Positions 11,459-24,296 of a DNA stretch of 64,000 nt are shown here, in pieces. Positions within the stretch are counted from its first letter, which is position 1, and each line of letters begins with the position of its first letter. This stretch comes from Elusimicrobiota bacterium (lineage in GTDB: Bacteria > Elusimicrobiota > Elusimicrobia > UBA1565). The notes under the pieces were generated by a model. It worked only from the letters and a program-made list of their open reading frames with translations. It did no database searches and had not been told where the DNA came from. The stretch is from assembly GCA_016196755.1 (NCBI GenBank), contig JACPXC010000038.1, positions 1-64,000 of the forward strand, written 5' to 3'. Both the position numbers and the translations under genes were made by a program.

Positions 11459-14400
11459 TTATCTGAGAAACGCGGTCAGGGAGCCCCAGACCGTCGACCA
11501 GACCGAGGAGAAGACCGTCCCGGTGAGGCGGCGCAGCCAGCCCGCGGGGGCCGGCGGCGCCAAGCGGGCGCCGTGCTTCTCCTGGGCTTGGCGCATAGCG
11601 GCCTCGGAGCTCGCCGCGACGGCGTCGGGGTCGCCCAGTTCGGCGTCGAGGACGGACAGGGCCTTGGCCAGGTCGAAGAGACCGGCGCCCACGGCCTCGC
11701 TCCCGCCGGGGACGGCCTCGGCCGTGCGCTCGACGACGCCCTCGAGATAGAAGGCGTAGCCGGTCGGCAGGCCGCGCCCCTTCTCCCGGAAGGCCTTGAG
11801 GAGCCGCTCGGTCAAAAGCGCCAGCTTGCCGGTCGTGTGCGGCGCGGCCATCGAGGTCCCCGACATGAAGTGGTAGAGGGCCTTCCCGCCCCACTTCACG
11901 GCCACCGGCTCCTCGGCCATCGCCTCGGACAGGCGGCGGTTGAGCGCCGAGACGATCTCGTAGGGGTTGGGCAGGCCGAAGAAGACCGCGCCGCCGAAGT
12001 CGAGCCAGCTGACGAGCGCGGTGCCCTTCCTGCCGCGCGAGGAGTAGTCGGTCAGGCTCTTGGCCTTGTCGACCGCCCCGACCGAGATGGCCAGGGGCGC
12101 GTTGGCCGGCGAGCTGACGGTGTCCTCCATCGGGCCCTCGTTGCCGGCCGCGGCCACGACGGTGATGTTCCTGAGCCTCAGCGCGTCGACCAAGCGGCCC
12201 AGCGCGCTGTCGGGGGCACCCGGCCCTCCCAGCGAGAGGTTGACGAGGACCGGCTCCTTGAGCGGGTCGGCGACCAGGCTGGCGGCCCACTCGAGACCGG
12301 CCATCACGGTGGCCTCCGAGCCGCCCTGGGCGCCCAGCACCTTGCCGACCGCGAAACGCACGCCGGGCGCCATGCCCGTGTAGGGAGAGTCGTCCTTGCC
12401 GCCGATGATGCCCATGCCGTGAGTGCCGTGGCTGACGCTCTCGGATTGCACGTCCTCGGGTCCGCCCTCCTCGGCGATGAAGTTCCTGCGGTGAGCGATC
12501 CGCGCGGCGGGGATGGCGGGATGGTCGGTGTCGCCGCCCTCGTCGAGGTGGACCACCAGGACCCCGTCGCCGCTCAAGGCGCGCGACTCGCGCGCCTCGG
12601 GGAGGCCGGAGAGCGGGCCGGTCTCCTTGAGCAGCCGATACATGGGGCCCGCGCGGCGGACCGTGAAACCCCTGGACTCGAGCTCGGTGCGCAGCGCCAT
12701 CACCTTCGGAGCGGGGACGCTCATCCAGACCGTCTGCGACACCGGCATGGCGGCCTGCAGGGCCGCGTCGTGGCGGTTGAGGGTCTCGGTGTCCAGGCCG
12801 AAGGTCGAAGCCGACTCGAGCGCCGCGCCGGGGACCTGGCCGCGGAAGTCCTGGAAGCGGGCGATGCGCGCCCCGGACTCGGGCATCTCGACGATGAGGT
12901 GGACCGGCCCCCGCAGGGAGTCGACGCCGGGCACCCCGGTCCCGTTCGGGTCGGGCAGGGGGGTGGGCAGGTCGATGGGCACGTTGACGATGCGGGCCAG
13001 GAGCCGGATCATCTGGCCCAGGGCGCCCTCGGCGTTGGCGTGGGCCTTGTAGGTGTTGATGAAGGCGACGATGGCGCCCCTGAGCGGCTCCTCGCCCATC
13101 CGGCGGCGCGCCTCGCTCGAGCGCGACACCGCGGAGAAGAACTTCGAGATAGTGCGGGTCAGCGCGAAGTTCTTGGGCCCCGAGGCGGCCAGGAGGCCGA
13201 GGATGGTCTCGTTGGTGACCGAGTCGGGCTTGGCGTTGGCGATCTCGGCCAGGGAGGCCACGGCCACGTGGCGTACGACGCCGCGCTCGCCCTCGCCGAC
13301 GGCCCTTGCCGTCAGCGCGTCGGCCGCGGCCGGCGGGGCCCGCGTGCCGAGCCGCCCCAAGAGCCAGACCGCGCTCATCCGGACCCGCTTGTCCTGGTGG
13401 GTCGCCGCGGCGCTCAGGCGGTCGATGCCGGAGGAGTCCCCGTGACGGGCCAGGGCGTAGGCGCCCCACATGCGCACGTCCGCGCGCGGGTCGCCCAGCG
13501 CGCCGCGCAGGGCGTCGTCGGCCGCGTAGCTCGGGGTCTCGGCCAGCGCCAGGAAGGCGGCCTGGCGGACGCGCGGCTCGGGGTCGGAGATCGCCGCCTC
13601 GGCCAAGGCCATCGCGGCCTCGGGCGTGCGGTGGTTGGCCAGCGCGAAGGCCGCGTAGAAGCGCACCAGCCAGACCTCGTCCTTGAGCGCGGCGGCCAGC
13701 TCGCCGGCCGCCGCGGCGCGGGCCGAGTTGAAGGCCCGGTCGAACACGGCGTTGGCCTGGTTGCCCAGCTCGCCCTTGATCTGTTCCGCATGCGTCTCGT
13801 CCTCGCTCGGCGCGTCGGTCGGCCCGGAGCGGGCCTCAAGAGCCTTGGCGGCGAGGAACTCCTTCTTGGCGGCCTCGGCCGACACGTAGGGGCGGTCCTC
13901 CAGCCCCCAGACCGCCTGAGCGCGCGCCATCCAGTCCCACGGGGCCGCCCCACCTTCTGGCTGGGAGGCGCCGGAGGACCGGAACACCGAGGTCAGGGCC
14001 TGGGCCAAGCGCCGCGGCCAGGAGAGCAGGTCGCCGCCGAAGCTCGAGGCCGCCAGCTGGACGGCCGCCTCGGCGTCGATGAAGCCCCCCTCCTGGAAGA
14101 ACAGCGGCACGCCCATGTCCTTGGAGGAGCGCATCAGGATGAGGGTAGCGGCCCGCGGCAGGTTCTCCATGAAGAACGTGTGGGCGGGGCTGCCCTCGGT
14201 CAACACCCGCAGGGCGGCCTGCTTGACGAGCAGGGCGACCGCGGCCACCATCGGGTTCGACATCGAGGTGCCCGACATCCGCGTGCCCTTGCCGTCGGCG
14301 GAATCGGAGGCCCCGGCCGGCATGTCCTTGGATTTGACCGACTCGATGCCGTGCTCGTAGACGTCGACGACCCCGGGCGGGGTCGTCACGTCGCCGCCGA

Positions 14401-17400: not shown

Positions 17401-17494
17401 GCGCTGCCACGCGCCCGACGACCTGCGCCCAGCCTTCCCCTCCCGACAGGATGACGAGGGTGGCGCTGAGCAGGGTCGCTATGAGTCGCTTCAT
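11459..17494 (-). CDS. Giant exported protein with an HExxH motif and two complete subtilisin (S8) domains
   Basis: The protein has 2011 residues. A signal peptide (MKRLIATLLSATLVILSGG, cut near GWA-QVVGR) leads into an Ala/Pro/Val linker to about 150. Two membrane segments lie at about 230-260 and 295-325. A zinc-protease-type motif HELSHYALD starts at residue 404. Subtilase 1 spans about 820-1110 with Asp in YDIDTG, His in GHGSHKAG, Asn in SAGNAG and Ser about 1077 in GTSMSNP. HEAT-like repeats occupy about 1265-1450. Subtilase 2 spans about 1640-1960 with Asp in HLDEGG, His in SHGTHG, Asn in AAGNEG and Ser about 1881 in SGTSMAAP. Both S8 triads are complete. ATG 17494 was chosen because it begins the signal peptide and lies 2 nt after the upstream stop. 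It is probably membrane-bound and faces the periplasm or exterior; substrates are unknown. Confidence 0.9.
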   Translation of the reverse strand: MKRLIATLLSATLVILSGGEGWAQVVGRVAAPAAPVAPGMGAAGAAPVLAPAPVSLSVAPLSSPRLSAPGLSVPVVSPALPKVSAMPSVAAPAAIAAPVAPVQAVPAAVAAPAAAEAPAIGGAAPATKAVPKTTPSRSFAAMLKSLSLPSLVSPSASSAGRQDAERDFARRVGGSAVTDGPAVAAAETLFQPRGAAGLVRLSGAMNAVAPETPGAAPKTSEAALPRDIARSPAPVRHRSAYFPIALAAASAAVLALMAGLPLAVDAVMSWFPSFSTMGDGLVGAPLPGAGVAAVLLGAAAVTAALTALYAAWDFALFTFAVARREPVSDAEFWAFMKKEIRRWNLHPSVAASLLGTGPGRGLLKAWRPTNRFESLSFGFTAGGSIWRRPELARSPWLFRWVLKHELSHYALDKGRGPPQGSGFLFRGWDFIISELQARVKEWRTAGSLSRLRIPVLERVLHDAQVSLDLGADYDALIIHPGTHETRNPQTFRELSGRRARVIALETGVPGAEPKAAAFVGSAVHRESDLAPRAEGLLQVLERKGYNERFRLVVYPQSFGVLPSGGTREGAKLDAALKQLDDLSLLRRKLAISGPAVFEDGTPEARRLEELAQQFGRRPKKGPNAGAIKTMLDDMFFKTARAGLADVQAAAVLERLYQSIDYKGTLLMPFAPGETGLDTVQRLVRYWQGSDGGSFQLSRVDLPEGGHVIVARKLEPRVDLWINPKAEGRVLGSVTRVFNHSRADQEAYLSEAGFDAQELTRFRNAGMRVKHVFGPEHGSRIYVSVKRSHAKALKRYGAEAGFRLDPSRAGYELHLRTSGPIQNVDKAWALGLDGSGGRIYDIDTGLDVDHPDFSDRAMKSVDFTNEGPEDWVGHGSHKAGISYANGAVYRGMAPKAEGRMGKVFSQSGVGASDGDIMAAAVDAMQWDADVVSLSLGSPGTVDSALAKFFSELSRRKNKRGHFPIVTASAGNAGPFNETRSQPSSGEFVTAVAAAAKSEDDGVPEISFYSSVGPALDKRWSRARWRRPYGLTALGGDVTTPPGVVDVYEHGIESVKSKDMPAGASDSADGKGTRMSGTSMSNPMVAAVALLVKQAALRVLTEGSPAHTFFMENLPRAATLILMRSSKDMGVPLFFQEGGFIDAEAAVQLAASSFGGDLLSWPRRLAQALTSVFRSSGASQPEGGAAPWDWMARAQAVWGLEDRPYVSAEAAKKEFLAAKALEARSGPTDAPSEDETHAEQIKGELGNQANAVFDRAFNSARAAAAGELAAALKDEVWLVRFYAAFALANHRTPEAAMALAEAAISDPEPRVRQAAFLALAETPSYAADDALRGALGDPRADVRMWGAYALARHGDSSGIDRLSAAATHQDKRVRMSAVWLLGRLGTRAPPAAADALTARAVGEGERGVVRHVAVASLAEIANAKPDSVTNETILGLLAASGPKNFALTRTISKFFSAVSRSSEARRRMGEEPLRGAIVAFINTYKAHANAEGALGQMIRLLARIVNVPIDLPTPLPDPNGTGVPGVDSLRGPVHLIVEMPESGARIARFQDFRGQVPGAALESASTFGLDTETLNRHDAALQAAMPVSQTVWMSVPAPKVMALRTELESRGFTVRRAGPMYRLLKETGPLSGLPEARESRALSGDGVLVVHLDEGGDTDHPAIPAARIAHRRNFIAEEGGPEDVQSESVSHGTHGMGIIGGKDDSPYTGMAPGVRFAVGKVLGAQGGSEATVMAGLEWAASLVADPLKEPVLVNLSLGGPGAPDSALGRLVDALRLRNITVVAAAGNEGPMEDTVSSPANAPLAISVGAVDKAKSLTDYSSRGRKGTALVSWLDFGGAVFFGLPNPYEIVSALNRRLSEAMAEEPVAVKWGGKALYHFMSGTSMAAPHTTGKLALLTERLLKAFREKGRGLPTGYAFYLEGVVERTAEAVPGGSEAVGAGLFDLAKALSVLDAELGDPDAVAASSEAAMRQAQEKHGARLAPPAPAGWLRRLTGTVFSSVWSTVWGSLTAFLR

Positions 17495-17496
17495 GG

Positions 17497-18609
17497 TCAG
17501 CGGATGAAGATGAGCTCCGGCTGGCGCTCGCGCGCGGTCTTTTTGGGCGCCGGCGCGGCCTCGGTCTTGTCCCAGGTCCAATAGCGGTCGAGGCGCGGCC
17601 GGGACGCGGGGCGCGGCGACTCCTCAAGCGCCGCGGTCAGGGATTCCTTGCGGTTGCGGCCTTGGCGCACGAGGGCGCTCGTGGCGCCCATCTTGAACGG
17701 AGCCGCTAGGCCGGTGGAGACGACGAAGGAGCTGCCGGAGTTCGGCCCGATGGCCTTGATCTCTGTGTTCATGAACAGCTTGAAGAAGGACCCGTCGCGC
17801 TGAAATCCCAGGATGACCCGCCCGTTGTCGGGCGCCGGATCATTGGAGGCGCGGCCGACGTATGTTGGGATGGCGGGAGTCTGCCACTGGGCCTCGAGCT
17901 TGCCGCTGACCGACCCGATGGCGCGGTTGTAGCCGAAGCCCGCGAAGGGGATGTACTTCCCGAACGCTTGGCTGGCCACGAGGTTCATGCCGAAGGAGCG
18001 CACGTCCCACTCCATCGTGCCGAAGTTCGTCGAGTCGGCGTTGAAACCCGGGGTCAGCTCGATGTTCTTGTATTCGTTGCGGAAGTTGAAGTAGCCGAAA
18101 GTGTGGTTGTAGACCGCGGAGACGCTGAGCAGGGGGCGGTGCCCGCCCATGAAATGGCGGCGCAGGGAGACGCCCAGGGTATTGGACTGGCCATCGCCGG
18201 TCGTCGTAGGCGAGAGCTTGTAGTTGTCGGGCGTCGTCATGTTCGCGAACCGAAAACCCATGTCGGTGCGCCCGGGCATGCCCATACGCATGTGGAAAGT
18301 GAGGTTCGGGAACATCATCCGGTCGGGCAGAGACTCGTCCGGCTTCTTCTCGGCCAAGGACGCCACCTGCAGCTGCGGGAAGGCCCCTTTGTTGAACGGC
18401 AGCAAACCCACCCCTAGGCTGACGTCCGGTTGGAGGCGCCAGGCGCGCATCTCGGTGGGCGGGTCAAACGAAGATCCCGCGTTGAAACCTAGTCCATCGG
18501 CAGTCTGCTTGGTCAGCCAGTTCATGATGCGGCCGTAGTCCTCTGCCATCGACGGGTTGTTCTGGGCGCCGGCCGAGGTCGCGCCGAAGGCGCCCAGGGC
18601 CGCCGCCAA
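17497..18609 (-). CDS. Probable outer-membrane beta-barrel protein coupled to the giant protease
   Basis: The protein has 370 residues: a signal-like N-terminus ending AGA-QNNPSM, then many alternating aromatic/glycine strands (MGFRFANM, SVSAVYNHTFGYFNF, FAGFGYNRAIGS) typical of a barrel. A charged C-terminal tail of about 50 residues follows. The stop codon is 2 nt before the ATG of the giant protease, so the two should be coupled. The start is odd. The only standard in-frame start is TTG 18609, which would leave a signal peptide without a basic n-region. The frame continues upstream as HKALAAALAAALG, and an ACG at 18639 preceded by GAGG would restore a normal leader. A role in protease export or anchoring is an inference. 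Confidence 0.75.
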   Translation of the reverse strand: MAAALGAFGATSAGAQNNPSMAEDYGRIMNWLTKQTADGLGFNAGSSFDPPTEMRAWRLQPDVSLGVGLLPFNKGAFPQLQVASLAEKKPDESLPDRMMFPNLTFHMRMGMPGRTDMGFRFANMTTPDNYKLSPTTTGDGQSNTLGVSLRRHFMGGHRPLLSVSAVYNHTFGYFNFRNEYKNIELTPGFNADSTNFGTMEWDVRSFGMNLVASQAFGKYIPFAGFGYNRAIGSVSGKLEAQWQTPAIPTYVGRASNDPAPDNGRVILGFQRDGSFFKLFMNTEIKAIGPNSGSSFVVSTGLAAPFKMGATSALVRQGRNRKESLTAALEESPRPASRPRLDRYWTWDKTEAAPAPKKTARERQPELIFIR

Positions 18610-20009: not shown

Positions 20010-20696
20010 CTAGCTGGAGTGGGACTCTTCCGCGGAGATGAGCCCGATCTCGATGCCCTTGACCACGGCCTCGGTCCGGTTCGAGACGTCGAGCTTCTGG
20101 AAGACGCTGTTGAGGTGGTTCTTGATGGTCTTGACGCTGCAGGTCAACGCGGAGGCGATCTCCTTGTTGGCCATTCCCCGGCCCAACAGCGACAGGACCC
20201 GGATCTCGGTCTTGGTCAGAGCGACGAGGGTGGCCTCGGCGGTGGCGTTGGACATCTGGCGCAGGCCCTGGATGAGCTTACCCATGACCGGCTGCGGGAT
20301 CATCACGCCCTCGTTGGCGAAGGTCTTGAGCGCGTTGACGAGCTCCGAGGCGGGGAGCATCTTGGAAAGGTAGCCGTTGGCCCCGGCCTGGATGGCCTCC
20401 ATGACGTGGGCCTCGTCCTCGAAGGAGGAGAGGATCAGGACGTTGGTGTCGGGACATTCCTTGCGGACCTGGCGGGTGGCCGAGATGCCGTCGAGGTGCG
20501 GGAGCTTGATGTCCATGAGGACGACGTTGGGCTTGAGCTTCTTGGCCATCCGCACGGCTTCCTGGCCGTCGGCGGCCTCGCCGACGACGACGACCGACTT
20601 CTCGTTCTCGAGAAGGTCTTTGATGCCTTCGCGGAACAAGGTCTGGTCGTCCGCGATCAGGACCGTGAGCTTCCTCTTCTGTGCGGGCGCGGCCAT
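20010..20696 (-). CDS. NarL/LuxR-family response regulator
   Basis: The protein has 228 residues. The receiver domain (about 8-125) has the acidic pair in LIADDQTLFREG and the phosphoacceptor Asp in VVLMDIKLPHLDG. A LuxR-type helix-turn-helix (about 160-220) shows LTKTEIRVLSLLGRGMANKE and TIKNHLNSVFQKLDVSNR. It probably gives the transcriptional output of the phosphorelay encoded just upstream, where the hybrid kinase gene begins 35 nt away on the same strand. The terminator at 19974-20000 closes the operon. Confidence 0.95.
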   Translation of the reverse strand: MAAPAQKRKLTVLIADDQTLFREGIKDLLENEKSVVVVGEAADGQEAVRMAKKLKPNVVLMDIKLPHLDGISATRQVRKECPDTNVLILSSFEDEAHVMEAIQAGANGYLSKMLPASELVNALKTFANEGVMIPQPVMGKLIQGLRQMSNATAEATLVALTKTEIRVLSLLGRGMANKEIASALTCSVKTIKNHLNSVFQKLDVSNRTEAVVKGIEIGLISAEESHSS

Positions 20697-20731
20697 GTGA
20701 TCCCCCTAAGAACCTATGACGACGGAATCTA

Positions 20732-21847
20732 TCACTTCTTGGACGGTATAGTGAAGAGGAACGCGGCTCCCTTCCCCTTTCCTTCCGACTCCACCCAGAT
20801 CCGGCCCCCGTGGCTGTGGACGATCTCCTTGGAGATCGACAGCCCGAGGCCGAGCCGGCCGCGGGCGGCGTGAGTGCCGGTGGGCTGGTAAAAACTCTCG
20901 AAGATCTTCTGGATCTCCGAGGGGTCGATGCCCTCCCCGGTGTCGCGCACGGCGAAGCGCACCCCGGCCTCGTCCTTTTCGGCCGAGACCTTGACCGAGC
21001 CGCCCTTCGCGGTATGGCGCAGGGCGTTCTCGAGCAGGTTGCTGAGGATCTGGGTCAGGCGGCGCTTGTCGGCCAGGATCTTGGGCAGCCCCTTGCCCAC
21101 CTCGAGGGTGAGCTGGATCGAGCGCTGGGCGGCGCGGACCTGGTGGCCGCCGGCCGAGTCCTCGACGACCTTCGCGGGGTCCTGGAGGTCCTTCTCGAGC
21201 CGGAACTTGCCCGACTCGATGGAGGCCCAGTCGACTAAGTCCTCGATGAGGCGCGAGAGCTGGGAGATCCCGTTGAGGATGTAATGCATGCGCTTCTTCT
21301 GGTCCTCGCTGGGGTTGAGGCTGCCCATCAGCATCTCGAAGGAGACCTGCAGGGTCATCAGCGAGTTCGAGAGGTCGTGCGAGGCCATCGAGAGGAACTT
21401 GGACTTCATGTTCGAGAGGTACAGGAGCTGCTCGTTGGCCTTGCGCAGGTCCTCGATGAGGCGGCGGTTGTCCTGGATGAGCCGCAGCTTCTCGACGGCC
21501 TTGGCGATGGCGCGGCGCAGGACGTCGAAGTCGACGGGCTTGACGAGGAAATCGTAGACCGACTCGCGTATGGCCTTGAGCGCGGTGTCGAGCGAGGCGT
21601 GCGCCGTCAGCATCAGGATCTCGCTCTGGGTGTTGACCTTGCGGATGTCGCGGATGACGTCGATCCCGGTGGCGTCGGGGAGGTTGAAGTCCATGAGGAT
21701 CACGTCGAAGAAGCCCGTGACGACCGCCTTCATGGCGTCGGCGCCGGTGCCCGCCTCGACGACCTCGTAGCCCTCCAACTCGAGGTTGTCGCGCACGCTC
21801 TCGCGCAGGTTGGCGTCATCGTCGACGACTAGGATGCGGACTGCCAT
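20732..21847 (-). CDS. Soluble response-regulator/histidine-kinase hybrid (REC-HisKA-HATPase)
   Basis: The protein has 371 residues. An N-terminal receiver has RILVVDDDANLRES with Asp in VILMDFNLPDATG and Lys in LVKPVD. A short coiled helix follows, then HisKA with the phospho-His near residue 154 (SMASHDLSNSL) and an HATPase domain (NLLENALRHT N-box, VRDTGEGI G1, GRLGLGLSI G2). It has no membrane segment, so it is cytoplasmic and probably takes phosphate from the upstream membrane kinase. The start ATG lies 1 nt after the stop of that kinase gene, so the two are coupled. Confidence 0.94.
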   Translation of the reverse strand: MAVRILVVDDDANLRESVRDNLELEGYEVVEAGTGADAMKAVVTGFFDVILMDFNLPDATGIDVIRDIRKVNTQSEILMLTAHASLDTALKAIRESVYDFLVKPVDFDVLRRAIAKAVEKLRLIQDNRRLIEDLRKANEQLLYLSNMKSKFLSMASHDLSNSLMTLQVSFEMLMGSLNPSEDQKKRMHYILNGISQLSRLIEDLVDWASIESGKFRLEKDLQDPAKVVEDSAGGHQVRAAQRSIQLTLEVGKGLPKILADKRRLTQILSNLLENALRHTAKGGSVKVSAEKDEAGVRFAVRDTGEGIDPSEIQKIFESFYQPTGTHAARGRLGLGLSISKEIVHSHGGRIWVESEGKGKGAAFLFTIPSKK

Positions 21848-21848
21848 T

Positions 21849-23879
21849 TCAGGTTCCTTGCGGCCGAGTGCCGGGCATGGCTCGGGCCGTCTGTGGGGGT
21901 TCGGTGCGCGCCGCCGGCGAGGCCGGCGCGGTGATGGGAGGCTTCACGGCGGGACGGGCGGCGGCCCCGGCCTGAGAGGGCTGGGAGGGGCGGTTCGGGT
22001 CGAAGAGCGGGAGGAACAGGCTGAAGGTCGTCCCGCGGCCGATCTCGGTGGCCACGTCGATGCGGCCGCCGTGCCCGTCGGCGACTTTCTTGACGACGGC
22101 CAGGCCCAAGCCGGTGCCGCGGGCCTTGGTCGTATAGAACGGCGTGAAGATCTTCTCGAGGACGTCCTGCGGGATGCCCGGCCCCGTGTCGCCGATGTCG
22201 AGACGCACCCAGCCCTTCTCGACGATGGAGGTCGCCACCCGCACGGCGCCCTGCTGGGGCATGACCTCGATGCCGTTGCCGATGAGGTTGCGCACCGCCT
22301 GCTTCATCTGGTCCTGGTCGATGGCCACCACCGGGTCGCGGGCGTCGAGCGATTTCTCGACGCGGATGTGGGGCGGGAACGGGTAGACCGAGAGGACCTC
22401 GTCGATCCAGCCATTGAGCTTGGTGACCTCGGGCTTCATCTCGCGCGTGCGCGAGTAGGTCAGGATCTCGTCGATGATCGAGTTCGCCTGCTTGACCTCG
22501 GACTGGATGATCGAGATGTGGCGCTCGATCTTGGGGTCGATCGTCGCCTCCTTCGCCATCTTGGTCTTGATGAAGAAGATCGAGTTGTTGATGACGGCCA
22601 GCGGGTTGCGTATCTCATGGCCGACGACCGAGGCCATCTGCCCGATGGCGGCCAGGCGTTCCTTCTTGATGAGCTCGTCCTGGGCCGCCTTGAGCTCGCG
22701 CGTACGCGCCTCGACGCGGCGCTCGAGGTCGCGGCCGTACTTGGTCAGCTCCTCCTTGGCGTGCAGGAGCTCGCCGGTCTTCTCCTTGAGCGAGTCCGAC
22801 ATCTGGACGAAGGATTGGGCGAGGTCGCCGATCTCGTCGTTGGTCAGGGTCATCTCCGGCAGGTCCTCGAAGCGGCCGGCGGTCAGGTGCTCGGCCGCCT
22901 GCTGGAGCACCCGGATGGGCTGGGTGATATGGCCGGCCACGGCGAGGGAGAGCAGCAGGGTGATGACGACGACCCACAGGAGGACCCTGAGGACCTGGGC
23001 CTTCATCTGCGTGGCCGCGAGGTAGGCGCTCTCGATGGGCTGCTGGACGTAGACGATCCAGCCCACGTCCTTGATCTCGGCGAAGGCGCCGAGGACCCGC
23101 GTGCCGTCCGAGAGCGCGACCTCGCCTCCGCCGCGCTTGGCGGTCTGGGTCAGGATGACCTTCAATATCTCCTCGGGCAGGCGCGCGTCGGTCTTGAACG
23201 CCTCGGCGGGGTTGGAGTGGGCCACGAGGAAGCTGTCGCGCACGTCGCCGGCCACGACGGCCGCCTGGCTGCGGCCCTTCTCCGGGAACTCCTGGCGCAG
23301 CATCTGGGAGAGGCCGTTGAGGCTGACCCGGCCGAGCAGCACCCCGCGCTTGACGGTCTGCCCGACGCCCGACTCGAGGATGGGGACGGCCAAGGTCAGG
23401 GTGGGATAGAGCCCTTGGAAGCGGGTGAGCCCCCCCATGTAGTCCCCCTTGTCGAGCGCGGCGCGGAAGGAGTCCTGGTCGGCGAAGTCGCGCATCTGGG
23501 GGGCGGCCCCCAGGAAGCGCCCCATACGGACCGTCTCGCGGCCCGCGGCGTCGAACACCGAGACCTCGAGGAAGGCCGCGTGCTGCTGCATGACGCGGTT
23601 TAGGTGCCGCTCCTGCTTGACCGGGTCCATCGTCGCGAAGCCCTCGAGGCGCGAGGCGATGGTCAGGACGGTCTTGAAGGTCGAGGTGTAGTTGGAGACC
23701 GTCTCGGCAAATCCCACCGCCAGCGACTGCTGGTGGCGCAGGGACTCCTCCTTGAGGACGGTCTGGGAGATGTCGATGAGGTGCCAGCCCACCACGCCCA
23801 TCGGGGCAAGCGAGATGAGCAGAAACCAGAGCAGGAACTTATATGCGAGCTTGCCGCGCCCGCGAATGGCCTCAGCCAT
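21849..23879 (-). CDS. Membrane sensor histidine kinase (Cache-HAMP-HisKA-HATPase)
   Basis: The protein has 676 residues. TM1 is at about 13-34; a large periplasmic double-Cache-like sensor spans about 35-315 (SVFDAAGRETVRMG, AVPILES). TM2 is at about 318-340 (VLLWVVVITLLLSLAVAG), followed by HAMP (ITQPIRVLQQAAEHLTAGRF) and a coiled coil. HisKA has the phospho-His near 420 (VVGHEIRNPLA), and the ATPase domain shows NLIGNGIEVM, IGDTGPGIP and GTGLGLAVVKK. The C-terminal tail (about 45 residues) is Pro/Ala-rich. It autophosphorylates in response to an unknown periplasmic ligand. Confidence 0.95.
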   Translation of the reverse strand: MAEAIRGRGKLAYKFLLWFLLISLAPMGVVGWHLIDISQTVLKEESLRHQQSLAVGFAETVSNYTSTFKTVLTIASRLEGFATMDPVKQERHLNRVMQQHAAFLEVSVFDAAGRETVRMGRFLGAAPQMRDFADQDSFRAALDKGDYMGGLTRFQGLYPTLTLAVPILESGVGQTVKRGVLLGRVSLNGLSQMLRQEFPEKGRSQAAVVAGDVRDSFLVAHSNPAEAFKTDARLPEEILKVILTQTAKRGGGEVALSDGTRVLGAFAEIKDVGWIVYVQQPIESAYLAATQMKAQVLRVLLWVVVITLLLSLAVAGHITQPIRVLQQAAEHLTAGRFEDLPEMTLTNDEIGDLAQSFVQMSDSLKEKTGELLHAKEELTKYGRDLERRVEARTRELKAAQDELIKKERLAAIGQMASVVGHEIRNPLAVINNSIFFIKTKMAKEATIDPKIERHISIIQSEVKQANSIIDEILTYSRTREMKPEVTKLNGWIDEVLSVYPFPPHIRVEKSLDARDPVVAIDQDQMKQAVRNLIGNGIEVMPQQGAVRVATSIVEKGWVRLDIGDTGPGIPQDVLEKIFTPFYTTKARGTGLGLAVVKKVADGHGGRIDVATEIGRGTTFSLFLPLFDPNRPSQPSQAGAAARPAVKPPITAPASPAARTEPPQTARAMPGTRPQGT

Positions 23880-23909
23880 CGCTCCCCGTCTTCCCCGCGG
23901 CCGGGATCC

Positions 23910-24296
23910 CTACGACCTGCCGCGCGACAAGAGCTGGCGGATGCGCACCGAGAGCTCTTGGAGGTCGAAAGGCTTGGTCAGGTACTCGTCGGCGCCCAAC
24001 TCGAAGCCCTGGGTCTTCTCCTCGGCGGAGAGGAAGCGCCCGGTCATCATGATGAGGATCGTCTCCCGCGAGTGCTTGCGCAGCTCCTGGCAGATCTGGA
24101 AGCCCGAGGAGTCCGGCAGTTGGATGTCCATGATGACGACCATCGGGTTGTTCTTCTTGGCGGTGGCGATGCCGTCGGCGGCCGCCCCGGCCTGGAGGCA
24201 CTCGAAGCCGTCGAGCTCGAGGACCTCGGCCAGGCTCTCGCGCAGGTGCGCGTCGTCGTCGATCACGAGGAGCTTCACGGGCTGATTCTGGGCCAT
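23910..24296 (-). CDS. Single-domain response regulator (CheY-like)
   Basis: This is a receiver domain alone, 128 residues, with LLVIDDDAHLRES, phosphoacceptor Asp in VVIMDIQLPDSSG, the Thr switch in ILIMMTG and Lys in YLTKPFDLQEL. With no output domain it probably acts as a phosphate shuttle or sink between the membrane kinase (30 nt downstream) and the other receivers in the cluster. Confidence 0.93.
   Translation of the reverse strand: MAQNQPVKLLVIDDDAHLRESLAEVLELDGFECLQAGAAADGIATAKKNNPMVVIMDIQLPDSSGFQICQELRKHSRETILIMMTGRFLSAEEKTQGFELGADEYLTKPFDLQELSVRIRQLLSRGRS

What the first reader, a model, noticed from the sequence alone, without database searches (positions are those of the whole stretch)
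11459..17494. One polypeptide with an integral-membrane HExxH motif and two complete subtilisin domains
Two full S8 triads separated by HEAT-like repeats, preceded by membrane segments and HELSHYALD, make a 2011-residue triple-protease candidate. Tandem active subtilases in one chain are rare, and combining them with a metalloprotease-like membrane domain is, to my knowledge, not a described architecture.
Basis: partly seen in the sequence, partly recalled or inferred. Interest (0 to 1): 0.75.

Follow-up and report, generated by a model that had tools for sequence, protein, structure and literature searches.

The report
Twin-subtilisin protein of Elusimicrobiota bacteria
One bacterial gene encodes a secreted protein that carries two complete, self-activating subtilisin proteases plus a membrane-linked metalloprotease-like domain; close relatives carry the same protease core fused to sugar-cutting enzymes or buried inside chains of 10,000 to 18,000 amino acids, so it may be a protease engine that cuts up its own giant precursors.

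Summary
Window 11459-17494 (-) is a 2011-aa ORF with HExxH (E405), triads D842/H873/S1077 and D1651/H1689/S1881, and HEAT repeats between them. A candidate third zinc ligand, E434, is invariant in homologues. Each subtilase also has its own I9-type propeptide: residues 715-1140 and 1529-1951 superpose on unprocessed pro-subtilisins (Z about 30-32). Two self-cleavages would therefore split the chain into three.

The host is Elusimicrobiota. The protein is a single-copy family in at least 39 of 56 genomes of its order, nearly always behind the same upstream barrel-like gene. Within the window's own family both subtilases stay intact. In the other two families of the order the second is a dead pseudo-subtilase (none of 22 keeps Ser), often followed by fused GH77-debranching enzyme or amylase-like domains. 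In another family of the class the same pro-S8-HEAT-pro-S8 core, both triads intact, lies inside continuous ORFs of 17,755, 14,654 and at least 10,571 aa carrying many further enzymes in shuffled order.

Most likely this is a self-maturing double zymogen, the compact form of a core that may process multi-enzyme precursors. Self-cleavage is inferred, not shown. The HExxH domain is zincin-like but assignable to no named family; M48/M56 is not supported.

The parts
17423..17494 (-). signal peptide-like N-terminus, residues 1-24 (MKRLIATLLSATLVILSGGEGWAQ)
   Evidence: sequence; similar hydrophobic N-termini in homologues
16814..17422 (-). Ala/Pro-rich linker, residues 25-227
   Evidence: sequence
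16685..16774 (-). first membrane-type helix, residues 241-270
   Evidence: AlphaFold helix 14-43 of the model; hydropathy peak 244-262
16529..16630 (-). second membrane-type helix, residues 289-322
   Evidence: AlphaFold helix 62-95; hydropathy peak 290-308
16085..16507 (-). zincin-like domain, residues 330-470: strands, helix with HExxH, loop with R-G-P-P, helix with ExxAR
   Evidence: invariant columns in A4; secondary structure of the model; weak M78/M48/Zincin_1 Pfam matches only
16271..16285 (-). HELSH, residues 404-408 (catalytic Glu405 if active)
16193..16195 (-). Glu434, candidate third metal ligand
   Evidence: invariant in 24 homologues
15353..16084 (-). middle region, residues 471-714, no known family
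   Evidence: conserved in homologues; no Pfam or NCBIfam match
15041..15352 (-). propeptide 1 (I9-type fold), residues 715-818
   Evidence: VIA alignment of model residues 488-913 (= 715-1140) to unprocessed pro-subtilisin E, Z 31.9
14075..15040 (-). subtilase domain 1 (S8-1), residues 819-1140; D842, H873, N970, S1077
   Evidence: Pfam PF00082; family alignment
12920..13822 (-). HEAT repeat domain, residues 1225-1525
   Evidence: Pfam HEAT_2; model pLDDT mostly above 90
12605..12910 (-). propeptide 2 (I9-type fold), residues 1529-1630
   Evidence: VIA alignment of model residues 389-811 (= 1529-1951) to pro-Tk-subtilisin, Z 29.9
11630..12604 (-). subtilase domain 2 (S8-2), residues 1631-1955; D1651, H1689, N1785, S1881
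   Evidence: Pfam PF00082 full length; family alignment
11462..11629 (-). C-terminal tail, residues 1956-2011
   Evidence: sequence
17497..18609 (-). conserved upstream gene, about 370 aa, secreted barrel-like protein distantly like DUF6588; ends directly before the protease start
   Evidence: adjacent homologue in 23 other loci of the order and in a different order, L107; Pfam DUF6588 below cut-off
9458..11443 (-). downstream N-acetylmuramoyl-L-alanine amidase (Amidase_3, weak AMIN), 15 nt after the protease
   Evidence: Pfam; homologue also found beside the protease in L039, L040 and L045

Best explanation
The gene encodes a secreted, membrane-tethered precursor made of a zincin-like N-terminal part and two pro-subtilisin modules joined by a HEAT-repeat arm. 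Each subtilase folds on its own I9-type propeptide and then cuts the junction behind it (about residues 810-820 and 1620-1632). This breaks the 2011-aa chain into (i) the membrane-anchored zincin part with propeptide 1, (ii) subtilase 1 with the HEAT arm and propeptide 2, and (iii) subtilase 2. The core is an Elusimicrobiota protease engine; in relatives the same engine is fused to, or embedded among, other enzymes that it probably helps to release from one long precursor. In the window's lineage the cargo is absent and the freed proteases would act in the cell envelope or outside the cell. Shown: domains, catalytic residues, propeptide folds (predicted models), conservation, cargo fusions. 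Inferred: self-cleavage, release of cargo, location, activity of the zincin part.
For: Two Pfam S8 domains with all catalytic residues. Models of residues 715-1140 and 1529-1951 match unprocessed pro-subtilisin E and pro-Tk-subtilisin over propeptide plus catalytic domain (Z 31.9, 324 residues, 3.5 A; Z 29.9, about 315 residues, 2.8 A). Both triads intact in every complete member of the window's family, at about 50-75% identity. S8-1 and S8-2 are separate old clades, and the second S8 of the related family is orthologous to S8-2 here. Same core, both triads intact, inside ORFs of 17,755, 14,654 and at least 10,571 aa with M48, MGDG synthase, glycosyltransferase, PLD, nuclease, channel or transporter domains; the largest is coding throughout (353 of 353 windows). 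Cargo order differs between the giants. In the related family the core is followed by fused GH77 plus GDE_C in 8 loci, or by that enzyme as the next gene in 4, or by amylase-like domains.
Against: No direct evidence of cleavage, expression or activity. Subtilases with propeptides are common, and self-removal of a propeptide does not by itself make a polyprotein. In most relatives of the order the second subtilase is dead, so release of cargo there would have to rely on subtilase 1 or another protease. The window's protein itself carries no cargo. Charge around the two membrane helices (Arg/His on both flanks) does not agree simply with the signal peptide, so topology is uncertain.
Confidence: 0.5

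Rival explanations
1. An ordinary secreted degradative or envelope quality-control protease with an unusually long chain: the two subtilases digest external or misfolded protein, the HEAT arm binds substrate, and there is no polyprotein role.
For: Secretion signal and hydrophobic anchor; neighbouring secreted amidase and barrel-like protein; about ten other S8 ORFs in this genome show a proteolytic lifestyle; no cargo in the window's own family.
Against: It does not explain why the same core is fused to GH77/GDE_C and amylase-like domains in many relatives or sits inside 10-18 thousand aa ORFs, nor why the second subtilase is kept as a dead domain in the related families.
Confidence: 0.3
2. 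A regulated pair like clostridial CspBA: one subtilase is the worker and the other a regulator or sensor, which is why the second domain can lose its catalytic residues in related families.
For: Tandem S8 with a dead second domain is known in CspBA, where CspB and the pseudoprotease CspA are made as one fusion and processed (PMC6464247); none of 22 loci from the two other families of the order keeps the S8-2 serine, yet the domain persists; the structure comparison lists the CspC-CspA heterodimer (Z 26.6).
Against: In the window's family and in the giants both domains keep every catalytic residue. No sequence relation to CspBA above the NCBIfam cut-off.
Confidence: 0.15
3. The HExxH domain is not a metalloprotease but a structural or membrane-anchoring domain that happens to keep a zincin-like motif.
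For: No zincin family passes a cut-off; the motif is lost in L064, L065 and in the homologous region of the 17,755-aa giant.
Against: H404, E405, H408 and E434 are invariant and the R-G-P-P loop nearly so in 24 homologues that are otherwise only 32-74% identical to the window; model order is strands, HExxH helix, Glu helix.
Confidence: 0.25

Closest known systems
Pro-subtilisins (subtilisin E, Tk-subtilisin, Tk-SP; peptidase family S8 with I9-type propeptide)
   Same: catalytic domain, triad, oxyanion Asn and N-terminal propeptide fold, twice
   Different: two modules in one chain, separated by HEAT repeats, behind a membrane zincin-like domain; propeptides not recognisable by sequence (propeptide 1; neither found by Pfam)
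CspBA of Clostridioides difficile
   Same: two subtilase domains in one translation product; in the related families of the order the second is a pseudoprotease, as CspA is
   Different: no HExxH domain or HEAT arm there (from general knowledge); here both domains are intact in the window's family; different phylum and gene context
M78/ImmA-IrrE, M48 and Zincin_1 metallopeptidases
   Same: HExxH helix with a Glu ligand on the following helix
   Different: no family match above cut-off; HExxH-x25-E spacing with a conserved R-G-P-P loop; not assignable
Giant bacterial ORFs reported for Elusimicrobia and Omnitrophota (PMC11573180, PMC12057145)
   Same: same phylum; three giants found here contain this core
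   Different: I found no report describing a subtilase-HEAT-subtilase core or a processing role in them; an earlier reading (cited in PMC12057145) is surface weapons

Membership tests
Peptidase S8 (PF00082) | score over the curated cut-off, both domains | tested here: met
   109.4 and 94.9 bits, cut-off 21.8
Peptidase S8 (PF00082) | Asp-His-Ser triad in this order plus oxyanion Asn | tested here: met
   D842/H873/N970/S1077 and D1651/H1689/N1785/S1881, conserved in the family
Peptidase S8 (PF00082) | subtilisin fold with I9-type propeptide | tested here: met
   predicted models match pro-subtilisins, Z 31.9 and 29.9
Peptidase S8 (PF00082) | proteolytic activity | not testable with these tools
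   needs protein
Zincin metallopeptidases (HExxH clan) | HExxH plus a distal third ligand, conserved | tested here: met
   H404, E405, H408, E434 invariant in 24 homologues
Zincin metallopeptidases (HExxH clan) | zincin fold | tested here: inconclusive
   secondary-structure order fits, but the structure search was filled by S8 matches
Peptidase M48 (PF01435) / M56 (PF05569) | Pfam score over the cut-off | tested here: not met
   no match in the window protein; best M48 E=0.079 in 1 of 24 homologues, M56 none
CspBA-type tandem subtilisin | two S8 domains in one chain | tested here: met
CspBA-type tandem subtilisin | NCBIfam CspBA score over the cut-off | tested here: not met
   13.7 bits against 1250
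CspBA-type tandem subtilisin | second domain catalytically dead | tested here: not met
   intact in the window and its family; dead only in the other families of the order
Self-processing polyprotein | several complete enzymes in one frame together with a protease | tested here: inconclusive
   not seen in the window protein itself (no cargo); present in relatives with the same core
Self-processing polyprotein | release of products by cleavage | not testable with these tools
   needs proteomics or mutants

The most novel reading that the evidence does not exclude
The propeptide-subtilase-HEAT-propeptide-subtilase core is the processing engine of true cellular polyproteins in Elusimicrobiota: many soluble and membrane enzymes are made as one chain of up to about 18,000 residues and released by the embedded subtilases and metalloproteases. 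The window protein is the compact, cargo-free form of that engine.
Probability: 0.3. Interest if true: 0.93.

Novelty: new variant of a known kind. Interest (0 to 1): 0.7.

Why it matters
Giant ORFs in Elusimicrobiota and sister phyla are a known puzzle: it is unclear whether they act as single megaproteins or are cut up. Finding one conserved double-subtilase core, with both active sites intact, in a stand-alone protein and in three giant ORFs, and with one site dead in enzyme fusions, gives that question a concrete, testable candidate for the cutter. It also provides a natural series from double-active to single-active tandem subtilases for studying how pseudoproteases arise.

Tried and rejected
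A single-protein genome-contig scan found nothing; the alignment scan worked. Profile searches of the zincin and propeptide-1 regions against the PDB gave only chance-level hits. Recent tandem duplication of S8 was rejected: S8-1 and S8-2 are separate deep clades, each shared with the related family, although some joins involve long branches. A mis-assembly or frameshift explanation of the ORF was rejected: homologues in independent assemblies are colinear. The 2397-aa plus-strand ORF opposite the gene was judged an effect of high G+C. The f21 giants (5,908-7,944 aa) have HExxH motifs but no GTS[MFAQ] serine motif and only weak zincin matches, so they are not counted as this family. The viral structure library result was not collected. 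No paper describing this architecture was found; that is weak evidence of absence because the library is open-access only.

Full report
What is there. Window 11459-17494 on the minus strand is one open frame of 2011 codons plus stop. Pfam finds two Peptidase_S8 domains and HEAT repeats, and nothing for residues 1-815; NCBIfam gives no match over a cut-off. In the whole genome both S8 domains pass the Pfam cut-off separately, and no other S8 ORF there has two separate domains. The active-site residues are D842, H873, N970, S1077 and D1651, H1689, N1785, S1881. The HExxH is HELSH at 404-408, after two hydrophobic helices.

Relatives and organism. A profile of residues 325-815 matches named Elusimicrobia MAGs. 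It is found once per genome in 37 of 56 genomes of the order and in 40 of 334 of the phylum; a few genomes show two or three hit stretches that belong to one homologue. A profile of the HEAT region adds two edge-of-contig cases in the order (G009, G018), so at least 39. So this is a conserved, nearly order-specific family, not a one-off fusion.

The HExxH domain. In 24 homologues H404, E405, H408 and E434 are invariant, with a nearly invariant R-x-P-P loop between them. The model (mean pLDDT 75, pTM 0.70) shows strands, a helix with HExxH and a following helix with E434. Zincin families are the only peptidase families among the sub-threshold matches: M78 E=0.012 in two members, M48 0.079 and Zincin_1 0.26 in one each. 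This fits a small divergent zincin, but the family is undetermined and the fold could not be searched apart from the subtilase in the same model. The motif is lost in L064 and L065 and in the homologous stretch of the 17,755-aa giant.

Two pro-subtilisin modules. The second model matches residues 1529-1951 to pro-Tk-subtilisin forms (Z 29.9, 314-316 aligned, 2.8 A; mean pLDDT 76, pTM 0.51). The propeptides were invisible to sequence searches. Knowledge of the S8 family says that such propeptides help folding, inhibit, and are removed by self-cleavage at the junction. Applied here this predicts two self-cuts and three products. That step is inference.

Fate of the second subtilase. All complete members of the window's family keep both triads. 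In the other two families of the order none of 22 loci keeps the S8-2 serine, and the Asp/His stretch is deleted or lost, while the rest of the domain persists: a pseudo-subtilase. S8-1 stays intact in most, but Asp is lost in L060, L062 and L065. A tree of S8 domains places the dead domains with S8-2 and separates S8-1 from S8-2 deeply, so the tandem is old and the dead copies are losses.

Cargo. Eight relatives continue in the same frame into 4-alpha-glucanotransferase (GH77) and amylo-alpha-1,6-glucosidase (GDE_C) domains; in four more the same enzyme is the next gene, one of them with a broken frame. Others end in amylase-like domains. The window's own genome has the GH77-GDE enzyme as a separate gene with its own signal-like N-terminus elsewhere.

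Giants. In family f14 of the same class, S8-HEAT-S8 lies inside ORFs of 17,755 aa (G228), 14,654 aa (G229) and at least 10,571 aa (G230, open from edge to edge of its contig). Both S8 domains keep Asp, His, Asn and Ser in all three, and the junction sequence TGPLSGxPE...GDGVL before S8-2 is recognisable from G228 to the window. An M48-type HExxH follows the core in all three (Pfam M48 in G228 and G230, motif only in G229). The G228 ORF is coding throughout by codon-position G+C and holds PLD, M48, MGDG synthase, GT28, DUF885, nuclease, M50, ClpB-type AAA, M14 and Met-zincin domains. Shared cargo lies in different order in the giants, which suits independently acting modules better than one fixed machine. 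Papers report that Elusimicrobiota are rich in huge proteins (PMC11573180) and that giant genes are common in Elusimicrobia and Omnitrophota and have been read as surface weapons (PMC12057145); I found no mention of this core.

Neighbourhood. A secreted, barrel-like protein distantly like DUF6588 ends directly before the protease start; its homologue is adjacent in 23 other loci of the order and in a different order (L107), but was not found beside the giants. In the window's genus and a sister genus an Amidase_3 gene follows. This points to the cell envelope. That the upstream protein is a beta-barrel is my reading of its sequence, not a tested result.

Mechanism. Shown: two complete pro-subtilisin modules, a conserved zincin-like motif with a candidate third ligand, signal-like N-terminus, membrane-type helices, cargo fusions and giants. 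Inferred: export, self-cleavage at both junctions, freeing of the subtilases, release of cargo in relatives. I put 0.5 on the self-maturing double zymogen, and 0.3 on the stronger claim that the core processes true polyproteins.

Verdict. The window protein itself is a new variant of a known kind (tandem subtilase zymogen with a zincin-like membrane domain). The wider pattern, one conserved double-protease core in stand-alone, fused and giant forms, is what makes it worth a specialist's time.

Noticed in passing
G228:C5:8767-62031 (loci L139, L108, L140, L141): Single 17,755-aa ORF in another Elusimicrobiota family with two intact subtilases, HEAT, seven HExxH motifs, M48, M50, M14, MGDG synthase, glycosyltransferase, PLD, DUF885, nuclease and ClpB-type AAA domains; coding throughout.
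   Followed up: yes
G229:C27:4576-48537 (L178-L180) and G230:C42:2-31714 (L182, L183): ORFs of 14,654 and at least 10,571 aa with the same core; cargo shared with G228 but in different order; G230 has a third S8 stretch near residue 3000.
   Followed up: partly
G229:C27:57352-72417 (L180, L181): A second giant ORF of 5,022 aa downstream of the 14,654-aa one.
   Followed up: no
L154/L155 (G261), L156/L157 (G336), L159 (G260): ORFs of 7,843, at least 7,944 and at least 5,908 aa with 5 to 7 repeated HELGH/HELRH motifs and no GTS[MFAQ] serine motif: a different multi-HExxH giant in another Elusimicrobiota family.
   Followed up: partly
L044, L047, L049, L053, L055, L056, L058, L059: Same protease fused in frame to GH77 plus GDE_C glycogen-debranching domains behind a signal-like N-terminus.
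   Followed up: yes
L061 (complete genome CP096137.1): The homologue looks broken by two frame changes, in the zincin region and at the GH77 junction: sequencing error or decay.
   Followed up: no
window 17497-18609 (-): Barrel-like secreted protein (DUF6588-like, below cut-off) tightly linked to the protease across the order and in one other order; function unknown.
   Followed up: partly
window 20010-24296 (-): Run of response regulators and sensor kinases upstream on the same strand, homologues also found beside the protease in L039, L040 and L042.
   Followed up: no
L138 (own genome, C49:7102-7812): Another long ORF (1,596 aa) with an M48 domain in the window's genome.
   Followed up: no
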